Positions 49,152 to 57,067 of a stretch of DNA of 64,000 nucleotides are shown here, piece after piece. Both the position numbers and the translations under genes were made by a program. Numbering within the stretch: the first letter of the stretch is position 1; the number at the start of each line of letters is the position of its first letter. Below the pieces are notes generated by a model, which was not told the DNA's origin, made no database searches, and saw nothing but the letters and a program-made list of their open reading frames with translations. The DNA comes from Halarcobacter sp. (GTDB taxonomy: Bacteria > Campylobacterota > Campylobacteria > Campylobacterales > Arcobacteraceae). The DNA is taken from the NCBI RefSeq assembly GCF_963676935.1, contig NZ_OY781470.1, positions 1,274,680 through 1,338,679 on the forward strand. The letters run 5' to 3'.

Positions 49152-50918
49152 ATGGGAAAAATTGTAGATATTGTTATTCCTGATTTAGGTGCTGACAAAG
49201 ATGTTGACTTAATAGATGTAATGGTTGCTGTTGGTGATACAGTTGAAGAGGAAGATGGACTAATCACTCTTGAAACTGAAAAAGCATCAATGGATGTACC
49301 AACAACTCATGGTGGAGTTATTAAAGAGATTCTTGTAAAAGTTGGTGATAAAGTAAACTCTGGTGATTTAATTGCTAGAGTTGAAGTAGAAGAGGAAGCA
49401 GCAACAACTGCTGCTCCTACACCAACTACAGAAGCTCCAAAAGCAGAACCTATAAAACAAGCACCAACTTCTACTGATACAAGTGGAGCAAGTGAAGTTA
49501 AAGGTCAAGTTTTAGTTATTGGTGCTGGTCCTGGTGGATATTCTGCTGCATTTAGATGTGCAGATTTAGGTCTTGATACAGTATTAGTTGAGAGACATGA
49601 TACTTTAGGTGGTGTTTGTCTAAATGTTGGATGTATTCCATCAAAAGCTCTTTTACACGTAGCAAAAGTTATTGAAGAAGCTGAGCATATTAATCATGCT
49701 GGTATCAAGTTTGCTAAACCTGAGATTGATTTACCAGGTGTAGCCGCATATAAAAGTGGAGTTGTTAAAAGACTTACTGATGGACTTGCTGGTATGGCAA
49801 AGATGAGAAATGTAAAAGTTATCCAAGGTACTGCAAGTTTTATTGATGAAAATTCTGTTATTGTAAATCATACAAAAGATGATGGAAAAACAGTAGTTAA
49901 ATTTGATAATTGTATTATTGCTGCTGGATCTCAAAGTTCTAAAATGTCATTTATCCCTCATGAGGATCCTAGAATTTGGGATTCTACAAATGCATTAGAG
50001 GTAAAAGAAGTACCTAAGAAAATGCTTATCATGGGTGGTGGTATCATCGGACTTGAGATGGGTACTGTTTACCAAAAATTAGGTTCTGAAGTTGATGTGG
50101 TTATTAGAGGACCTCAAGTTATGACTGGAACTGATAAAGATATCGTTAAGGTATATACAAAAGCAAATGAGAAGAGATTTAACTTTATGTTTAAAACTCA
50201 AACTCAAGCTATTATCCCTAAAGAAGATGGTATTTATGTTGAATTCAAAGGCGATAATGCACCAGAACCAAAAACTTATGATGCAGTTTTAGTTGCTATG
50301 GGAAGAACACCAAATGGACTTAAAATAGGTCTTGAAAATACTGGTATTGAAGTTGATGATAAAGGATTTATCTCAGTTGATAACCAAATGAGAACAAAAG
50401 TTCCTCATATTTTTGCTATTGGTGATATTATTGGTGGACCAATGTTAGCACATAAAGCGGTACATGAAGGTCATGTGGCAGCAGAAGTTATTGCAGGTCA
50501 CAAAGTATTCTTTGAACCAAAACAAATCCCAGGAATCGCTTATACATTCCCAGAGATTGCAACAGCTGGTATGAGTGAAATAGAAGCTAAAGAAGCTGGT
50601 ATCAATTATGAAGTTTCATCATTCCCATGGTCTGCTTCTGGACGTGCATTAGCAGCAGATGTTGCAGATGCTGGTATGACAAAACTTATCTTCGATAAAG
50701 ATACTCACCAACTAATTGGTGGAGCAATCGTAGGAGATAACGCAGGAGAGTTATTAGGAGAAATTTCACTAGCTCTAGAGATGGATTGTGATGCAGAAGA
50801 TATAGGACTTACAATTCACGCTCACCCAACACTACACGAGTCTGTAGGTATGTGTGCAGAGATATTCCACGGAAGTATTACTGATTTACCTAATGCGAAG
50901 GCTGTAAAGAAGAAATAG
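49152..50918 (+). CDS. lpd: Dihydrolipoamide dehydrogenase (PDH E3) with N-terminal lipoyl domain
   Basis: A 588-residue flavoenzyme that reoxidises lipoyl groups on E2 with NAD+. Residues 1-80 are a lipoyl domain (LETEKASMDVP). After a Pro/Ala/Thr linker, the FAD site is LVIGAGPGGYSAAF, the redox pair is GGVCLNVGCIPSK (about residue 157), the NAD site is MGGGIIGLEMGTVYQ, and the C-terminal catalytic His-Glu is HAHPTLHESVG. The N-terminal lipoyl domain is almost identical to the first one of AceF, at DNA level too. A decayed copy of its 3' end lies at 51932-52109. Confidence 0.97.
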   Translation: MGKIVDIVIPDLGADKDVDLIDVMVAVGDTVEEEDGLITLETEKASMDVPTTHGGVIKEILVKVGDKVNSGDLIARVEVEEEAATTAAPTPTTEAPKAEPIKQAPTSTDTSGASEVKGQVLVIGAGPGGYSAAFRCADLGLDTVLVERHDTLGGVCLNVGCIPSKALLHVAKVIEEAEHINHAGIKFAKPEIDLPGVAAYKSGVVKRLTDGLAGMAKMRNVKVIQGTASFIDENSVIVNHTKDDGKTVVKFDNCIIAAGSQSSKMSFIPHEDPRIWDSTNALEVKEVPKKMLIMGGGIIGLEMGTVYQKLGSEVDVVIRGPQVMTGTDKDIVKVYTKANEKRFNFMFKTQTQAIIPKEDGIYVEFKGDNAPEPKTYDAVLVAMGRTPNGLKIGLENTGIEVDDKGFISVDNQMRTKVPHIFAIGDIIGGPMLAHKAVHEGHVAAEVIAGHKVFFEPKQIPGIAYTFPEIATAGMSEIEAKEAGINYEVSSFPWSASGRALAADVADAGMTKLIFDKDTHQLIGGAIVGDNAGELLGEISLALEMDCDAEDIGLTIHAHPTLHESVGMCAEIFHGSITDLPNAKAVKKK

Positions 50919-50948: not shown

Positions 50949-50980
50949 CCCATCTTCTATTTTGAAGGTGGGTATTTTAT
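50949..50980 (+). terminator. Terminator of the PDH operon
   Basis: A 9-bp stem (CCCATCTTC with GAAGGTGGG, one wobble), a 6-nt loop, then TATTTTATTT, 30 nt after the lpd stop. It is shared with the convergent DUF2238 gene. Confidence 0.8.
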
Positions 50981-51579
50981 TTAAATTTTTTTAAGCCCCA
51001 TAGTCTTTTGTAACTTCTATAAAATATAATATTTATAAGTGCACCAATACAAGCTAAAAGTGTATCTTTATGTGCATCCCACATATCTCCTTGTGTGCCT
51101 AAGAAAGCCATTCCTAATTTAGGATAGAAATTAATAGCAACAAACCATTCTACTAATTCATAAATTGTAGAAATACAAACGATTAAAGAAAAAGTAAAAA
51201 ATAGGGCACTTTTTAAACTACTTGAATAAACAAGGACTATTTCAAATAAACTTCTAAAAACAAGTAGTCCAAAAAGAAAATGTACTATTCTATCAAAATG
51301 ATTTCTTTCAAAGCCAAATAGTTGTGTTATAAAATCAAAGTATTCCATCTCAGCATAGGTAAAATGAGCACCCAAAGAGTGTAAGCTTGCAAATACTAAA
51401 AGAAAAATAATACTTAAAAGGGTGTATTTGTATCTTATATCAGACCAAAGTACAAATGGAAAAAATAAAAATACTAATATATTCTCTAGAAACCAGTCTT
51501 CTGGATATTTAGGGTTTATTGCTAGAATAATCCAAATCAATATATAAATACTATAGATGTTTTTATGAGATTTTTCCAT
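50977..51579 (-). CDS. DUF2238 (YjdF-like) membrane protein
   Basis: A 200-residue protein with about six hydrophobic helices. The family blocks are SLHSLGAHFTYAE, RNHFDRIVHFLFGLLVFR and FLGTQGDMWDAHKDTLLACIGA. DUF2238 proteins are inner-membrane proteins of unknown function, with conserved His and Asp suggesting metal or lipid chemistry. ATG at 51579 follows AAAGGAAATATA-type sequence. It lies between the lpd 3' end and a decayed duplicate of it. Confidence 0.88.
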   Translation of the reverse strand: MEKSHKNIYSIYILIWIILAINPKYPEDWFLENILVFLFFPFVLWSDIRYKYTLLSIIFLLVFASLHSLGAHFTYAEMEYFDFITQLFGFERNHFDRIVHFLFGLLVFRSLFEIVLVYSSSLKSALFFTFSLIVCISTIYELVEWFVAINFYPKLGMAFLGTQGDMWDAHKDTLLACIGALINIIFYRSYKRLWGLKKFK

Positions 51580-51610
51580 TATATTTCCTTTATGTTTCAG
51601 TGTAGAGTCA

Positions 51611-51825
51611 TCAAGCCCTAGTTTTTTCCAATTGCTTGATTAATTTTGAATTATCATCTTTAAATAATTTTCGATAGTATCTAGTATGAAAAGCAATTCT
51701 GCTAACTCTTCTTTGACTTTCTCTTATGTAGTTTTTGTCATCATATGCTAAATGTTTTGTATTTTTGGTAAAGGTAATATCTCTTTAAAAGAATTTGATA
51801 CATTATTTGAAGATTCTATTATCAT
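51611..51825 (-). pseudogene. Frameshifted small gene remnant
   Basis: From an ATG at 51825 one frame reads MIIESSNNVSNSFKEILPLP and stops soon after. The next frame then continues as KHLAYDDKNYIRESQRRVSR and HTRYYRKLFKDDNSK up to the TGA at 51611. The total length is not a multiple of three. Joined across an A-rich stretch near 51756, they would give a coherent basic protein of about 71 residues. The parent family is not recognised. It is either a decayed gene or a sequencing/assembly frameshift. Confidence 0.5.
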
Positions 51826-51931
51826 ATGAATTCTCTTTAGACTATTAAAAAGAATTGTATTATTTGTTTTATTAATAATGGTTTAAGTTATATATAATTT
51901 AATGTTACTATTAAGTGTATTTCTTAAAATA

Positions 51932-52109
51932 GATTGTGATGCAGAAGATATTGGATTTGCAATTTATGCTAATTTAATATTTATGAGTTTGTAAGTATGT
52001 ATGTGGAGATATTTTACGGAAGTATTTAATGTCAAGGCTGTTAAGAATAAATATTTTTTAGGCTATTTTTAAAAAAATTAAAAACATCTTTATTTTTTGA
52101 AGGTGGGTA
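51932..52109 (+). pseudogene. Decayed duplicate of the lpd 3' end and its terminator
   Basis: GATTGTGATGCAGAAGATAT at 51932 repeats the lpd sequence starting at 50784. Similarity continues with substitutions and small gaps (GAGATATT-T-ACGGAAGTATT, AAGGCTGT, AAGAA) through the stop region and into the terminator arm GAAGGTGGGTA at 52099-52109, matching 50964-50974. Stop codons interrupt the frame. It is about 1.15 kb from the original in direct orientation, with the DUF2238 gene and a small remnant between. It shows that this junction was duplicated and then decayed. Confidence 0.8.
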
Positions 52110-52157
52110 ACGGTTGACTTCAGTGATGCTGTGCGTTCACTGCTAGATTTTGTTATG
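52108..52157. repeat. Hairpin downstream of the NACHT gene, weakly attC-like
   Basis: CAGTGA (52121-52126) pairs with TCACTG (52137-52142), flanked at equal 9-nt spacing by TAAC (52108-52111) and GTTA (52152-52155). Base composition is richer in G and C than the surroundings. It begins 28 nt past the NACHT stop on the minus strand. Terminator, recombination scar or a shortened attC-like site are all possible; attC consensus is not met. Confidence 0.35.
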
Positions 52158-52184
52158 TTTTTTATTTAAAATTATGTATCACCG

Positions 52185-55100
52185 TTAATTTGAAACTGAT
52201 TCACTCAATCCATTGTGTTCCAGCCAAATTTTATAAATTCTACCTACTAACGGGTTAATTAGTTTATCTCGTTGTTGTTCAAATTTTATTAGTTGTTCTC
52301 GAGTTAATATTTGAGCATAAAAATCTGTATATTTTTCAAACATTTGTGCAGATATTTGATCCCAATTGTAGTTAAGAAAACTAGACAAAAATATATTTGA
52401 TAACTCATCATTCCAATTTTGTTCACATACTATTTGAATCGTTGGATAAAACATATGGTGCGATATAAAAAAAGGTAAATATTGTTTAATAAGTCCTATT
52501 GGATCAACAGTGAAATTATTTTTTAGTAAATAGTCTGATACATAAATCTTTACTTCTTCATCTTTTATCTTGTTTGCAAAGTCTTCAATTTTAGAGAGAT
52601 CAATTTTACTGAGAACTTTTGTTTTTATCTCATCACTTTCAAGGGTATGCTTTGTATCTATTAAAAGGAGTTTTAGGGCTGTTGAATCATCAAAAGTTAT
52701 GTTTTCATCTAAGTTAAAAAAATCAAACACTCTTGTAGTTAGGTAATTAGAATAGCTATATTGATCATGAGTTATTGTTTCAGGAGATAGATTTATTAAT
52801 AGTTTTTCTACAGTTTCAGATACTATTTGAATAGCTGTTTCATTCTTATCGAGTTTTAAATAGTACTTGGCATAATTCAATTTAATTCCATAACTTTCTT
52901 CTTCAACATGAGAAAAATAATTATCAATTTTATTCGCAAGATCATCGCTAATATTTAATTTTTCTCGGGATGTCAAGTAAAACATTGCTTGGTTTTTTTC
53001 TTCTGAATAATTTCGAGAAAAAGTCAAATCAACAACAGGAAGGAAAAAATTAGTTTTACTTTCAGAAGCTATCTCCCATATAAACCAGTAAATATAAAAA
53101 TCATGTGGAAATTTTAAACTTTTATATGTTTTTATTAATATGTTAATTTGTGATGAAGTTAATTCAAATTTTTTAATAAATTCCATCAGTTCCATCAACC
53201 CATGTTGTATCTCAATTAGTTCTGCTTCTGATTTATTACATTGCTCAATAAAGAAATTAAATTCTTCACTAATATCAGTCTTAATTCCTAAAAACAAAAG
53301 TACTTTTTTTGCATTATGTGCATTATCGTGTCTATCATGAATAAGTGCATTTAATTTGGTTATTAATAAATCTTGGTTAATTGCATATAAGGCCATACAT
53401 GCTTGATTGAATTCTTTTCTTATTTTTGTATTTTCAATAACTAAAACTAAAATTTCTATATCATAACTATCTCCAAACAATTCTATGGTTTCTAAAGAAA
53501 AGCATAGAGGTATTCTTTTATTATTAATCCATTTGTCTAAACGAGATCTTGCAATATCTGTAATAATTGATGGAGGAGATTTAAACCAAATCTCATATGT
53601 TCCTCCTGAAACTCTAACTGGAGCTTGTGCCATACGCTCTTCTTTGGCAAGAATTGTATGCAAAGTTTTCTTATCACCATTTACAGCAAGTGAACGTAAC
53701 TTTTGTCCTAAATGATGTGCATCAATGTCGTTCGTTGTTGAACGAAGTCTTTCTAAACAATTTTCAGTTCCGAGTATTCCTAATGCATAAATAGCTTCAC
53801 CTCTTTTAAGAACTTTTTCACTCTGTTCATTTTCTAAAATAATCTTTTCGACTTTTTCTATAAGTTCTTGGCCAAACTTCTTACTTACTTTTGCAGCTAA
53901 TATGAGATTGAATGGTAATAATGCAGCGAGAAATTCTTCTCTTTCTTCTTCATCTATAAAGTTACTTGTGTATAGCCATATATCATAAAAAGAGTTGACT
54001 AAAGATGTATCTAAATGGCTCCTCCAGTTTTTTGCAAAGACTTTTGCAACAAGATAATCAGAGATAATTGGATGTGGAGTAGAAAAATAGCTATCATCTT
54101 CTAGAAGCAATATCTCATAATGAGAAATCATAGATACAAATTCATTCAAGTTTAAACATTTAGCTATATATGAATTAGATGATGATAGTTCGTCATAAGA
54201 CTCTATGATAATTTCATGAAAACTGTCCTTTGGAATTGAAAATAAATTTTTCTCAATCTTAGATTTATATAGAATTAGTGAAAAAGCTTGCTCTATATAT
54301 TTGGAAGGTACCTGATTCACTTTATTACTAGTATCTCTGACTTTTGATGCATCATTTTTAATTTTTGATTGAATCCAATTTTCTAAAATGTCTTCAATTT
54401 TATTAGGTATGTTTTTATTTTTTTTATAAAACTCTATGGTTATAGAAAGGAAAAAAGGCAAAGATAGGAAATTAAAGCCTATGGAACTTAGCCTTTGTCT
54501 ATATTCATCATAAAATTTTTGCAACTCTTCACCTTGAAAAGTTTTTTCAGCTATCTGAAATGCACTACGATATGATAAGGGTTGAATTGAGATTGAATAA
54601 TCTAATGAAGGTAATACAGTTTCAATATTTAGCCCCGTACTTCTTGTGGTAAGAATAAAACTATTACCATCAATGACTGTACTAATCTCATCAATAAATG
54701 CCTTCGTATCATGCTGAAGCATTTCATCAAGCCCATCAAATAAAAATATAAATTTAAAGGGAAGACTTCTCCATGATCCATAGTTTATATTTAACTCTTG
54801 ATCTATTTTTTGCTTCAAAGTATTTCGAGAGTAGTTTCTCAAATTTATTCTAATTGGTAAAAATTGAATATCATTAAGAGAATTTATTAATTCATTTTCA
54901 ATTATTGAGAGTGTACTAGACTTTCCACTACCACCTAATGATGAAATGAGAATGCTCTTCTCTTCTTTTAAAGATGAAATAACATCATTTGTTGACCATA
55001 CTTGACCCTCGATACTATTTCTGTTTCCTACCACAGTTAAATTGTTTGGCAAAGGTGCTTGTTGAAACTGTAAAGGTATTAAATTTTGATTTTTACTTTG

Positions 55101-55796
55101 TGTTTTTTTTAGATAATCAGAAAGATTGAAATCTGGACGTGGATGTTCTTTAAATACAACCGCTAAGGAGAAGTGGTTTTCTAAAATATCGTGCAATCTA
55201 CTCCATATTACTACTAATTCATTTTGAAAGTCTACACCAGACCAAACAATCAAATCATTCAAAGAATCAAGATAACTACATATTGCATCATATGGATCTA
55301 TATTTTGACTTTTTGCTTTTTCAATCAAAGTCAACTGCAATTTTTTTTCATCTATTAGTTTTTTTGAAGCTGCTTTTAAGTCAGTATATCCAGCTTGTCT
55401 AAGTTCTTTTCTGAGCTGTGTACCTACGTTTCCAGATGTAATTATATAGTGGTATTTTGGTATCGCATTATCCAGTACACCATTTAAAGCGACCTTTACT
55501 ATTTCTTCAACAACTGTTCCCGTATATAAAGTGCTATTGTATCGTTTACATTGTATACAAACTAATTCATTATCCGTTGTCTTTTTTGCTGTGCAGTCAA
55601 AACCTTCATCCCTTGATGGCTGACGACCTGATTGCATTTGGAAATTTTTTTCTTCTCCAAGTACAACTAAGGACCGATACACAAAATCTTCAAAAGAGTC
55701 AGAGGAAAGTTCACCTAAAGGTAAATTGCCATTTTGATATAAATTAGGTTTGGAAGTATTAGCAATGTTCAAAATCAACTTTTCCTTTTTTGTCAT
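52185..55796 (-). CDS. Mrr-like nuclease-NACHT NTPase fusion, candidate anti-phage defence protein
   Basis: A 1203-residue protein. Residues 30-130 match an Mrr-type restriction endonuclease fold with Glu36, Asp67 (DEGFDCTAKK) and the Q-x-K pair Gln82/Lys84 (VCIQCKRYNS), followed by YHYIITSGNV. Residues about 275-450 are a NACHT P-loop NTPase: Walker A SSLGGSGKSSTL (Lys292), Walker B IFLFDGLDEM (Asp354, Asp357, Glu358) and sensor FILTTRSTGL. The remaining 700 residues are helical with HEAT/TPR-like rhythm, expected to be the sensor. This nuclease-NACHT-repeat order is that of bacterial bNACHT/Avs-like immune proteins, which detect phage proteins and trigger nucleic-acid cleavage. It uses CGN arginine codons noticeably (for example CGT and CGA near the N-terminus), unlike neighbours. 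No partner gene is present. Family function is known; activity here is inference. Confidence 0.88.
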   Translation of the reverse strand: MTKKEKLILNIANTSKPNLYQNGNLPLGELSSDSFEDFVYRSLVVLGEEKNFQMQSGRQPSRDEGFDCTAKKTTDNELVCIQCKRYNSTLYTGTVVEEIVKVALNGVLDNAIPKYHYIITSGNVGTQLRKELRQAGYTDLKAASKKLIDEKKLQLTLIEKAKSQNIDPYDAICSYLDSLNDLIVWSGVDFQNELVVIWSRLHDILENHFSLAVVFKEHPRPDFNLSDYLKKTQSKNQNLIPLQFQQAPLPNNLTVVGNRNSIEGQVWSTNDVISSLKEEKSILISSLGGSGKSSTLSIIENELINSLNDIQFLPIRINLRNYSRNTLKQKIDQELNINYGSWRSLPFKFIFLFDGLDEMLQHDTKAFIDEISTVIDGNSFILTTRSTGLNIETVLPSLDYSISIQPLSYRSAFQIAEKTFQGEELQKFYDEYRQRLSSIGFNFLSLPFFLSITIEFYKKNKNIPNKIEDILENWIQSKIKNDASKVRDTSNKVNQVPSKYIEQAFSLILYKSKIEKNLFSIPKDSFHEIIIESYDELSSSNSYIAKCLNLNEFVSMISHYEILLLEDDSYFSTPHPIISDYLVAKVFAKNWRSHLDTSLVNSFYDIWLYTSNFIDEEEREEFLAALLPFNLILAAKVSKKFGQELIEKVEKIILENEQSEKVLKRGEAIYALGILGTENCLERLRSTTNDIDAHHLGQKLRSLAVNGDKKTLHTILAKEERMAQAPVRVSGGTYEIWFKSPPSIITDIARSRLDKWINNKRIPLCFSLETIELFGDSYDIEILVLVIENTKIRKEFNQACMALYAINQDLLITKLNALIHDRHDNAHNAKKVLLFLGIKTDISEEFNFFIEQCNKSEAELIEIQHGLMELMEFIKKFELTSSQINILIKTYKSLKFPHDFYIYWFIWEIASESKTNFFLPVVDLTFSRNYSEEKNQAMFYLTSREKLNISDDLANKIDNYFSHVEEESYGIKLNYAKYYLKLDKNETAIQIVSETVEKLLINLSPETITHDQYSYSNYLTTRVFDFFNLDENITFDDSTALKLLLIDTKHTLESDEIKTKVLSKIDLSKIEDFANKIKDEEVKIYVSDYLLKNNFTVDPIGLIKQYLPFFISHHMFYPTIQIVCEQNWNDELSNIFLSSFLNYNWDQISAQMFEKYTDFYAQILTREQLIKFEQQRDKLINPLVGRIYKIWLEHNGLSESVSN

Positions 55797-56002
55797 TGAT
55801 TAATAACTTATATTTACATAACTAATTATTAATAATACATTATATATAAATAATATATAAAAACATCTAATATCTTAACATTAAAAATGTAAAGATATTG
55901 ACTTAATTAAGGCTTAAATAGTCTAAAGTCAACGATATACAAAATAATATAAGAAAAAATATAATATTTTTAGAGGGTTTTCATGATTTTTTTATGTTAG
56001 AT

Positions 56003-56080
56003 TATCAAAGTATATTCTTAATATCTTATCATTTTGTATGACTATTGGACAAATTCTTTGATAGTTTAACAAAATGATAA
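56003..56080. repeat. Interleaved inverted repeats (pseudoknot-type order)
   Basis: TATCAAAG (56003-56010) pairs with CTTTGATA (56056-56063), and TTATCATTTTGT (56026-56037) pairs with ACAAAATGATAA (56069-56080). The arms alternate A-B-A'-B'. Both pairs are perfect (8 and 12 bp). Confidence 0.7.
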
Positions 56081-56123
56081 ATATATTATGTTTTTAAATG
56101 AACTTTCATTCTATATTTTACTT

Positions 56124-56159
56124 TTTGGTACTTTCTTTTATGAAAAAGAAAGTACCAAA
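56124..56159. repeat. 16-bp perfect hairpin, REP- or terminator-like
   Basis: Arms TTTGGTACTTTCTTTT and the complement, loop ATGA, 58 nt beyond the acyl-ACP thioesterase stop on the minus strand. There is no T-run after it in either direction, which argues for a repeat element or RNA-end structure over a classic terminator. Confidence 0.65.
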
Positions 56160-56216
56160 GAACTCATCTCTGTGAGTATAAGAGAGCAAAGAGGAGTATC
56201 TAACTCCTAAAAAAAT

Positions 56217-56969
56217 CTATTTTTCTATCTTCTTCCAAACTGATTTACCAGTTGCACAAACTACATCACTCCCTTTTATCTTTATAGTATGTATAAAAGA
56301 GTTCTCTTCAACATCCTTTTTTGTTAAAGATAAAATCGAATCACCATAATGAGCCTCTGAAATAAAACGTCCATCAATAAAGTATAAATAGTAATTGTCT
56401 AATATTTCATCAGGAATTGATTCCATAAGCCATTGTAGATATCTAAGATTATTAACATGTTTATTGGTATCTGTATCATACATATTAACTTTAAACTCTT
56501 TTTTGTATTCAAAAGAATTGAGAGGTTCAATTTTATTACTTATATCATGTTCAAGAGATATTGTATTACAAGATGACCATTTTTCTATAAAATCAGGGTG
56601 TATTTTTTTAGGTCTTCTTTTTTTTATATCGTAAAATACCCATAAACCTCTGGCTCTACCTATTATATTGTAGTTTTCATCATAAATAATATTTTCTCTA
56701 AAACCTCTTATAGAATGATATTTTGATATCCATGTTCTTATAATTATTTTTTCTTTATAAAGTGGATAACGTTCCATTTCCATTGCTCCAGCAAGGAGTA
56801 CCCAGCCAAGATTTTCAGACATTAAAGATAAAAGGTCATGCCCAGCATAATGACAATGTTCAGCGGCAGTCTCTTGAAGTAGAGTTAATATAGAAATAGC
56901 CGAAGCTTCACCTAATCTATTCATTTCAAAAAATCTTAATTCAAACTCTTTATCAAAATAGTTTTCCAT
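56217..56969 (-). CDS. Acyl-ACP thioesterase (FatA/B-like double hotdog)
   Basis: A 250-residue protein with two hotdog units. FDKEFELRFFEMNRLGEASA and ILTLLQETAAEHCHYAGHDL form the first; YKKEFKVNMYDTDTNKHVNNLRYLQWL holds the Asp-Asn-His type active-site region of the second. It releases fatty acids from acyl carrier protein. The length fits bacterial members. ATG at 56969 with AGAAGGA 6 nt upstream is chosen over the ATG at 57002. It is a single gene divergent from the downstream ABC-F gene. Confidence 0.88.
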   Translation of the reverse strand: MENYFDKEFELRFFEMNRLGEASAISILTLLQETAAEHCHYAGHDLLSLMSENLGWVLLAGAMEMERYPLYKEKIIIRTWISKYHSIRGFRENIIYDENYNIIGRARGLWVFYDIKKRRPKKIHPDFIEKWSSCNTISLEHDISNKIEPLNSFEYKKEFKVNMYDTDTNKHVNNLRYLQWLMESIPDEILDNYYLYFIDGRFISEAHYGDSILSLTKKDVEENSFIHTIKIKGSDVVCATGKSVWKKIEK

Positions 56970-57067
56970 AATATGTCCTTCTAATAAATGAATATATACC
57001 ATTTAAACATAATTGTCAAATATAAAATAAAAAAGAATGCTAAACTATTTTATAACCCACATTATCA

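What the first reader, a model, noticed from the sequence alone, without database searches (positions are those of the whole stretch)
52185..55796. Single-gene Mrr-nuclease-NACHT immune protein in an accessory insertion
The 1203-residue protein joins a restriction-type nuclease (Glu36, Asp67, Gln82-x-Lys84) to a NACHT NTPase (Lys292, Asp354, Glu358, Arg385) and about 700 residues of repeat-like helices with no recognisable family. All catalytic motifs look intact, there is no partner gene, codon use differs from neighbours, and both sides show scars. That is the expected build of a bNACHT/Avs-like anti-phage system. The large C-terminal sensor could define a new subgroup.
Basis: partly seen in the sequence, partly recalled or inferred. 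Interest (0 to 1): 0.75.

Follow-up and report, generated by a model that had tools for sequence, protein, structure and literature searches.

The report
Immune-type nuclease gene on orphan integron
A large bacterial gene that looks like an anti-virus immune sensor with a DNA-cutting end sits as a swappable gene cassette in a capture site that has lost its own recombinase, and related species carry other immune-type genes at the same kind of site.

Summary
The ORF is real but on the minus strand (52185-55796, 1203 aa): an Mrr-type nuclease, a NACHT-like STAND NTPase and a long helical (HEAT-like) C-terminus. It is absent from the 15 other genus genomes held. Overall codon use is ordinary.

It starts at an attI crossover (G|TT, 55822|55821), ends in an attC (52155-52108), and sits behind an attI/promoter leader whose copies elsewhere lie beside intact or broken integron integrase genes. 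None is left here.

Such integrase-less leaders stand at three chromosomal loci in several species, with different cassettes; recognisable ones are AbiU, AbiL, a DRT reverse transcriptase, TIR proteins and a second STAND protein. Eleven of 12 form one clade, but a few other leaders also lack integrase, so loss occurred more than once. Most likely function: abortive anti-phage nuclease switched on through NACHT. Not shown: anti-phage activity, or cassette movement by integrase in trans.

The parts
52185..55796 (-). CDS, 1203 aa: Mrr-type nuclease - NACHT-like STAND NTPase - helical C-terminus
55395..55712 (-). Nuclease domain, residues 29-134 (Mrr_cat; E36, D63, D67, Q82, K84 conserved)
   Evidence: Pfam PF04471 28.2 bits, cut-off 21; invariant columns
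54534..54956 (-). NACHT-like NTPase, residues 281-421 (GGSGKSS, FLFDGLDE, TTR)
   Evidence: Pfam NACHT over 345-421, E 4.5e-4, below cut-off; K292, D354, E358, R385 invariant in homologue
52188..54416 (-). C-terminal helical region, residues 461-1203, presumed sensor
   Evidence: weak HEAT matches; all-alpha model of the C-terminal 764 residues, mean pLDDT 60.6
52111..55821 (-). Integron gene cassette, 3711 bp, from attI crossover to attC crossover
52108..52155 (-). attC site, 48 bp, 29 bp after the stop codon
   Evidence: only match of the attC pattern in 64 kb, 0.03 expected; 43 of 48 bases equal to the attC at the end of an AbiL cassette in G014
55822..55971 (-). attI/promoter leader of an integron, ending at G|TT
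   Evidence: copies lie next to integron integrase genes; sequence similarity stops at the crossover in 29 leaders
55972..56153 (-). Upstream part of the leader unit (matched part 55995-56092) and palindrome at 56130-56153
   Evidence: related DNA at lpdA, rodA-side and kinase loci of several species
51929..52115 (+). Decayed second copy of the lpdA 3' end and its terminator, abutting the attC
   Evidence: 70% and 76% to the lpdA 3' ends of G014 and G010
50977..51579 (-). DUF2238 membrane protein gene between true lpdA and the decayed copy
   Evidence: Pfam PF09997; 85-90% homologue behind lpdA in G003 (one ORF between), G005, G009, G012
49152..50918 (+). lpdA, left core border of the site
   Evidence: 16 of 16 genus genomes
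56217..57002 (-). Acyl-ACP thioesterase-like gene (name recalled), right border
   Evidence: 5 of 16 genus genomes

Best explanation
The gene is an integron gene cassette that codes for a single-protein NLR-like immune nuclease. Shown by sequence: it begins at an attI site (G|TT), ends in an attC, and lies directly behind a leader which elsewhere is the integrase-attI intergenic region; no integrase gene remains at this locus, and the only integron integrase found in this genome is broken. Inferred: the leader's promoter drives it; the helical C-terminus recognises an infection cue, the NACHT-like module then binds NTP and oligomerises, and the Mrr-type nuclease is activated and degrades DNA, stopping the infected cell. 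Inferred too: this leader is one of several orphan capture sites in the genus whose cassettes were exchanged, by integrase acting in trans or before its loss.
For: Protein. Absence from 15 of 15 other genus genomes. Site occupied by other genes in relatives. Leader = integrase-attI region. attC. Immune-type genes at sister platforms: AbiU E 1e-151, PDC-M54A 4e-14; RT_UG36 3e-161, AbiLi 3e-102, AbiLii 7e-21, TIR 4e-23; SpbK 4e-43. Precedent for a nuclease-NACHT immune protein whose nuclease degrades DNA on phage infection: bNACHT25, PMC12169576 (passages). Precedent for defence cassettes in integrons: PMC12409362 section 5 (passages).
Against: NACHT score is below Pfam's cut-off in both homologues tested. 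No obvious ribosome-binding site before the ATG (by eye). The Methylophaga homologue is followed 32 bp later by a SLATT gene, so a partner may be missing here. The window attC is not found by the sequence model of the commoner attC type and folds only modestly better than shuffles (z -1.8 and -1.2). No integron integrase over cut-off in this genome, so the cassette may now be frozen. Leader matches beside the three intact integrases are short.
Confidence: 0.75

Rival explanations
1. Ordinary decay: each orphan site was a complete integron that lost intI by deletion, and present cassettes were captured in cis before that or exchanged by homologous recombination between conserved flanks. No trans-acting integrase and no spreading orphan lineage is needed.
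For: Many leaders in the genus carry truncated or broken intI (stubs at G006c, G001b, G005, G003, G013, G001d, weak at G011d; broken at G011c, G017b, G009, G000c). Leaders outside the orphan clade also lack a clear intI piece (G033, G008, G015a; G017a has one weak hit, E 0.005), so loss happened more than once. intI loss is a proposed origin of CALINs (PMC8618304, passage), and CALINs sit at fairly conserved places in Xanthomonas (PMC12444791, passage). Core genes flank the lpdA and rodA-side sites (16 of 16 and 15 of 16 genomes). One rodA-side leader (G001) belongs with the integrase-linked leaders.
Against: 11 of 12 orphan leaders form one clade (96/97); at seven orphan copies over three loci the same upstream joint stands where intI would be, which points to one loss followed by spread for this clade.
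Confidence: 0.52
2. The protein is a restriction or plasmid-control enzyme that acts on foreign DNA directly, not an NLR-like abortive sensor.
For: Mrr_cat family match; the Methylophaga record annotates its homologue as restriction endonuclease.
Against: STAND-type NTPase motifs and the long helical part are conserved over nearly the full length.
Confidence: 0.12
3. The attC is just a terminator hairpin and the leader just a repeated promoter; no integron is involved.
For: attC sites fold as hairpins; the region is AT-rich, and a palindrome lies upstream.
Against: intI starts lie about 90-170 bp from the leader in intact integrons, similarity ends at G|TT, and the same attC classes punctuate multi-cassette arrays.
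Confidence: 0.04

Closest known systems
bNACHT25/bNACHT32 (clade 6 bacterial NACHT proteins)
   Same: N-terminal PD-(D/E)XK-type nuclease, central NACHT, C-terminal sensor (PMC12169576, passages); single gene (recalled)
   Different: C-terminus here is a long HEAT-like helical region; no NCH1 match at E<=1; not shown to defend
Avs (antiviral STAND NTPases)
   Same: nuclease-STAND-repeat plan (recalled)
   Different: no Avs profile at E<=1 in PADLOC
LmuA of Lamassu
   Same: nuclease domain matches, E 3.4e-10, residues 30-192
   Different: neighbouring genes are not SMC-like; the STAND and helical parts lie outside the match
Defence cassettes of chromosomal and mobile integrons
   Same: anti-phage type gene with attC, in first position behind the promoter (PMC12409362 section 5, passages)
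   Different: 3.7-kb cassette, whereas that review calls integron-borne defence systems size-reduced and systems of more than two genes absent; no integrase and no array here
CALIN (attC clusters lacking an integrase)
   Same: attC without neighbouring intI
   Different: single attC here, attI/promoter leader kept, one leader clade at several loci; by default IntegronFinder 2 needs two attC sites and it does not detect attI outside class 1 (PMC9024848, passages)

Membership tests
bNACHT / NLR-related protein | central NACHT module | tested here: inconclusive
   Pfam NACHT E 4.5e-4, 20.5 bits vs cut-off 26.7; homologue 24.8 bits; Walker A, Walker B and Arg residues invariant
bNACHT / NLR-related protein | N-terminal effector domain (nuclease) | tested here: met
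   Mrr_cat 28.2 bits vs 21, 30.3 bits in homologue
bNACHT / NLR-related protein | C-terminal sensor domain | tested here: inconclusive
   all-helical model, mean pLDDT 60.6; Foldseek only generic helical repeats, TM below 0.36
bNACHT / NLR-related protein | anti-phage activity | not testable with these tools
   needs plaque assays
Avs | match to Avs profiles | tested here: not met
   PADLOC at E<=1 lists only LmuA
Lamassu | SMC-like LmuB partner gene | tested here: not met
   adjacent genes are a DUF2238 gene and a thioesterase-like gene (by eye)
Integron gene cassette | attC after the ORF | tested here: met
Integron gene cassette | start at attI crossover G|TT | tested here: met
   29 leaders: pairwise identity 0.76 in the 30 bases before, 0.38 in bases 4-30 after (0.34 expected)
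Integron gene cassette | excision and insertion by IntI | not testable with these tools
   needs a recombination assay
Complete integron | intI beside attI | tested here: not met
   no intI piece in 3 kb upstream at this site, best hit E 0.37; own-genome intI is broken and elsewhere
CALIN | two or more attC sites without intI | tested here: not met
   one attC pattern match in the window

The most novel reading that the evidence does not exclude
A lineage of integrase-less attI/promoter platforms has spread to at least three chromosomal sites in this genus (beside lpdA, a rodA-side gene and an FGGY-kinase-like gene). It works as a set of satellite capture-and-expression slots, served in trans by an integron integrase elsewhere, and preferentially holds large immune genes.
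Probability: 0.37. Interest if true: 0.75.

Novelty: new variant of a known kind. Interest (0 to 1): 0.58.

Why it matters
It links a large NLR-like protein to integron capture, although integron-borne defence systems are described as size-reduced. It also suggests that attI sites without integrase persist, keep one lineage and hold swapped immune genes. Standard integron searches would by default miss such single-attC, integrase-less units. Whether they are dead relics or slots served in trans is directly testable.

Tried and rejected
Reading the locus as a mere insertion with unusual codon use: not borne out. Avs membership: not met. My by-eye label 'SLATT' for the 170-aa gene in G014: no Pfam or PADLOC match, dropped. 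Rfam search of 51500-56500: only sub-threshold matches. Structure of residues 1-669: mean pLDDT 41, not used. Structure of the C-terminus: pLDDT 60.6, Foldseek hits generic. Model of attC: RNAalifold gave no base pairs, so sequence only; it does not find the short window attC. Profile search of the PDB with residues 1-669: only a nucleotide-binding protein ExpZ (E 5e-4) and chance-level hits. More relatives: none in viral contigs or phage records, one plasmid record of 72,556, one genome-contig locus (only two short patterns were used), 1 of 397 genomes of the phylum full length, the own one, 1 of 369 of the Methylophaga genome's class, the centre genome itself; at most two candidates per genome appear as scored, so distant relatives may be missed. 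Two partial hits and one were set aside; one (L036) keeps 45 residues at 56% near an attC-like site in another genus.

Full report
Observation. The ORF 52185-55796 is on the minus strand and intact, 1203 aa. Pfam gives Mrr_cat at 29-134 over cut-off and NACHT at 345-421 below cut-off. PADLOC gives only LmuA over the nuclease (E 3.4e-10). The only full-length relatives found are in Methylophaga: a plasmid protein (P0002, 1222 aa; 23% identity over nearly the full length, E 1e-71) and a near copy in a Methylophaga MAG. In the Methylophaga plasmid the gene is followed 32 bp later by a SLATT_5 gene (Pfam E 8e-33) and lies near a RES-family gene. The second STAND protein of this genome shows no clear similarity to P0001 (best E 0.02).

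The gene is accessory. None of the other 15 genus genomes held has it. lpdA is found in 16 of 16 and the thioesterase-like neighbour in 5 of 16. Between lpdA and that neighbour, G010 and G014 carry other genes; in G011 an AbiU homologue lies behind lpdA, on a contig that ends soon after. The leader described below is present at the lpdA site in 4 of 16 genomes; G006 has only a 57-bp piece there. Codon use is ordinary overall, though GC3 is third highest of 43 ORFs.

The carrier. The DNA just upstream of the gene has matches in 28 of 60 genomes searched, the own one included (E <= 1e-4, many of these short); the best ones besides itself are 82-91% identical. In the own genome a 91% copy stands before a second STAND ORF of 1424 aa with a nuclease-like N-terminus by eye. 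An integron integrase search (TIGR02249) gives matches over cut-off in 4 of 16 genus genomes and a gene in two frames, below cut-off, in the own genome; all 16 genomes and all 14 controls match at E <= 0.001, which is the level of tyrosine recombinases in general, and none of the controls passes the cut-off. Nearly full-length leader matches lie beside broken or truncated integrases (G011, G017, G003, G013, G009), and short matches ending at the same crossover lie beside the broken one of G000 and the intact ones of G010, G001 and G015; G012 has an intact integrase but no leader match in the stretch held. In 29 leaders similarity stops at the G|TT crossover: mean pairwise identity 0.76 in the 30 bases before, 0.38 in bases 4-30 after, 0.34 expected from composition there. 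So the leader is the integrase-attI region, and the start codon lies 25 bases into the cassette.

attC. A search with three attC sequences gave 67 hits in the held loci, many being one palindromic site read on both strands; 35 sites were aligned, the others being partial, reverse readings or left out. They punctuate arrays, including the one beside the broken integrase of the own genome. The window site is of a shorter class: TAACAA-N(28-50)-AAMCGTTA occurs once in 64 kb (0.03 expected), 29 bases after the stop codon, and 43 of its 48 bases equal the attC at the 3' end of the AbiL cassette of G014, which overlaps the last codons of AbiLii. Against: the sequence model of the commoner class misses it and its fold is only mildly better than shuffles.

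Orphan platforms. Leaders without an integrase piece (no hit better than E 0.16) stand at lpdA (4 of 4 copies), at the rodA-side gene (5 of 5, plus G010 with best E 0.28) and at the FGGY-kinase-like gene (2 of 2). Outside three lpdA copies only 600-1200 bp upstream were read, and 209 bp for G011's lpdA copy; where present, intI starts about 90-170 bp away. The names rodA and FGGY are recalled. Of the 15 genomes where the rodA-side gene was found, 7 have a leader at the site and 8 do not in the stretch read, which was 2.6 kb for G007 and 8 kb for the others (G013's leader is much diverged, and a weak hit in G002 lies 5.7 kb away). A tree of 30 leaders puts 11 of 12 orphan ones in one clade (96/97); the exception is G001. 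Against a single loss of integrase: G033, G008 and G015a, whose leaders fall with the integrase-linked ones, also show no clear integrase piece. Two same-genome groupings appear (G006 pair 88/86; the two G000 leaders with G010's lpdA leader 94/89), but not for G011 or G014. Some leaders have long branches, so placement is uncertain. A search with the upstream module of one copy found 17 places in 8 of 16 genomes: nine are orphan sites at the three loci, seven of them spanning the joint; its 3' part also matches beside some integrase-linked leaders, as the integrase promoter region should. The window copy keeps only that 3' part.

Cargo. First genes at orphan sites: the window protein (LmuA 3e-10), AbiU, PDC-M54A, RT_UG36, AbiLi, SpbK; no PADLOC match at E<1e-9 for those of the G010 lpdA, G014 lpdA, G001 rodA-side, G011 rodA-side, G006 kinase and G011 kinase sites. 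That is 6 of 12 (the diverged G013 site was not scanned), against 1 of 9 first genes scanned at leaders with intact, broken or truncated intI, that one an HNH protein (nine chosen, not all). First ORFs are longer at orphan sites, median 368 vs 172 aa, 12 sites vs 18 other leaders, Mann-Whitney p 0.012. These are small samples of related genomes, not independent events.

Mechanism. By analogy with bNACHT25, whose nuclease is needed for protection and degrades DNA on infection (PMC12169576, passages), I expect sensing by the helical C-terminus, NTP-driven oligomerisation and DNA degradation. This is inference. The C-terminal model is all-helical but of low confidence, and Foldseek hits are generic helical-repeat proteins.

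Known and new. Defence genes in integrons are known; the review passages read (PMC12409362) say such systems are reduced in size and that systems of more than two genes are absent. CALINs are known, loss of intI is one proposed origin (PMC8618304, passages), and they sit at fairly conserved places in Xanthomonas (PMC12444791, passages). By default IntegronFinder 2 requires two attC sites, and it does not detect attI outside class 1 (PMC9024848, passages). Searches for orphan or multiple attI sites without integrase listed no paper on such dispersed platforms in titles and abstract openings (20 of 396 papers shown, 20 of 20, 15 of 67, 10 of 12, 12 of 14); the nearest were cassettes with attI-derived 3' sites in mobile integrons (PMC12901181, abstract and passages). 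The library holds open-licence papers only, so this is a weak negative.

Noticed in passing
L099:3935-8209 (own genome, G000:C1 about 1044.4-1048.7 kb, minus): Second large STAND protein of this genome, 1424 aa, with a nuclease-like N-terminus by eye, also behind an orphan attI leader; PADLOC PDC-M54A 4e-14.
   Followed up: partly
L149 (G000:C1:1778000-1797800): Multi-cassette integron array beside a broken integron integrase in the same genome.
   Followed up: partly
window 50977-52115: DUF2238 gene between the true lpdA and a decayed second copy of the lpdA 3' end; looks like recombination with an lpdA-DUF2238 allele of relatives.
   Followed up: partly
L006:11669-12433: SLATT_5 gene 32 bp after the Methylophaga homologue, a possible partner effector missing from the window.
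   Followed up: no
L109:2892-3647: Cassette at the G001 rodA-side site with a penicillin-binding transpeptidase-family (PF00905) protein, resembling class D beta-lactamases by recall.
   Followed up: no
L036 (other genus of the family): 45 residues 56% identical to P0001 residues 157-201 near an attC-like site: a possible decayed relative.
   Followed up: partly
window 56130-56153: Palindrome of the type ACTTTCTTTT...AAAAGAAAGT, also upstream of other orphan leaders; seems part of a longer interspersed repeat.
   Followed up: partly
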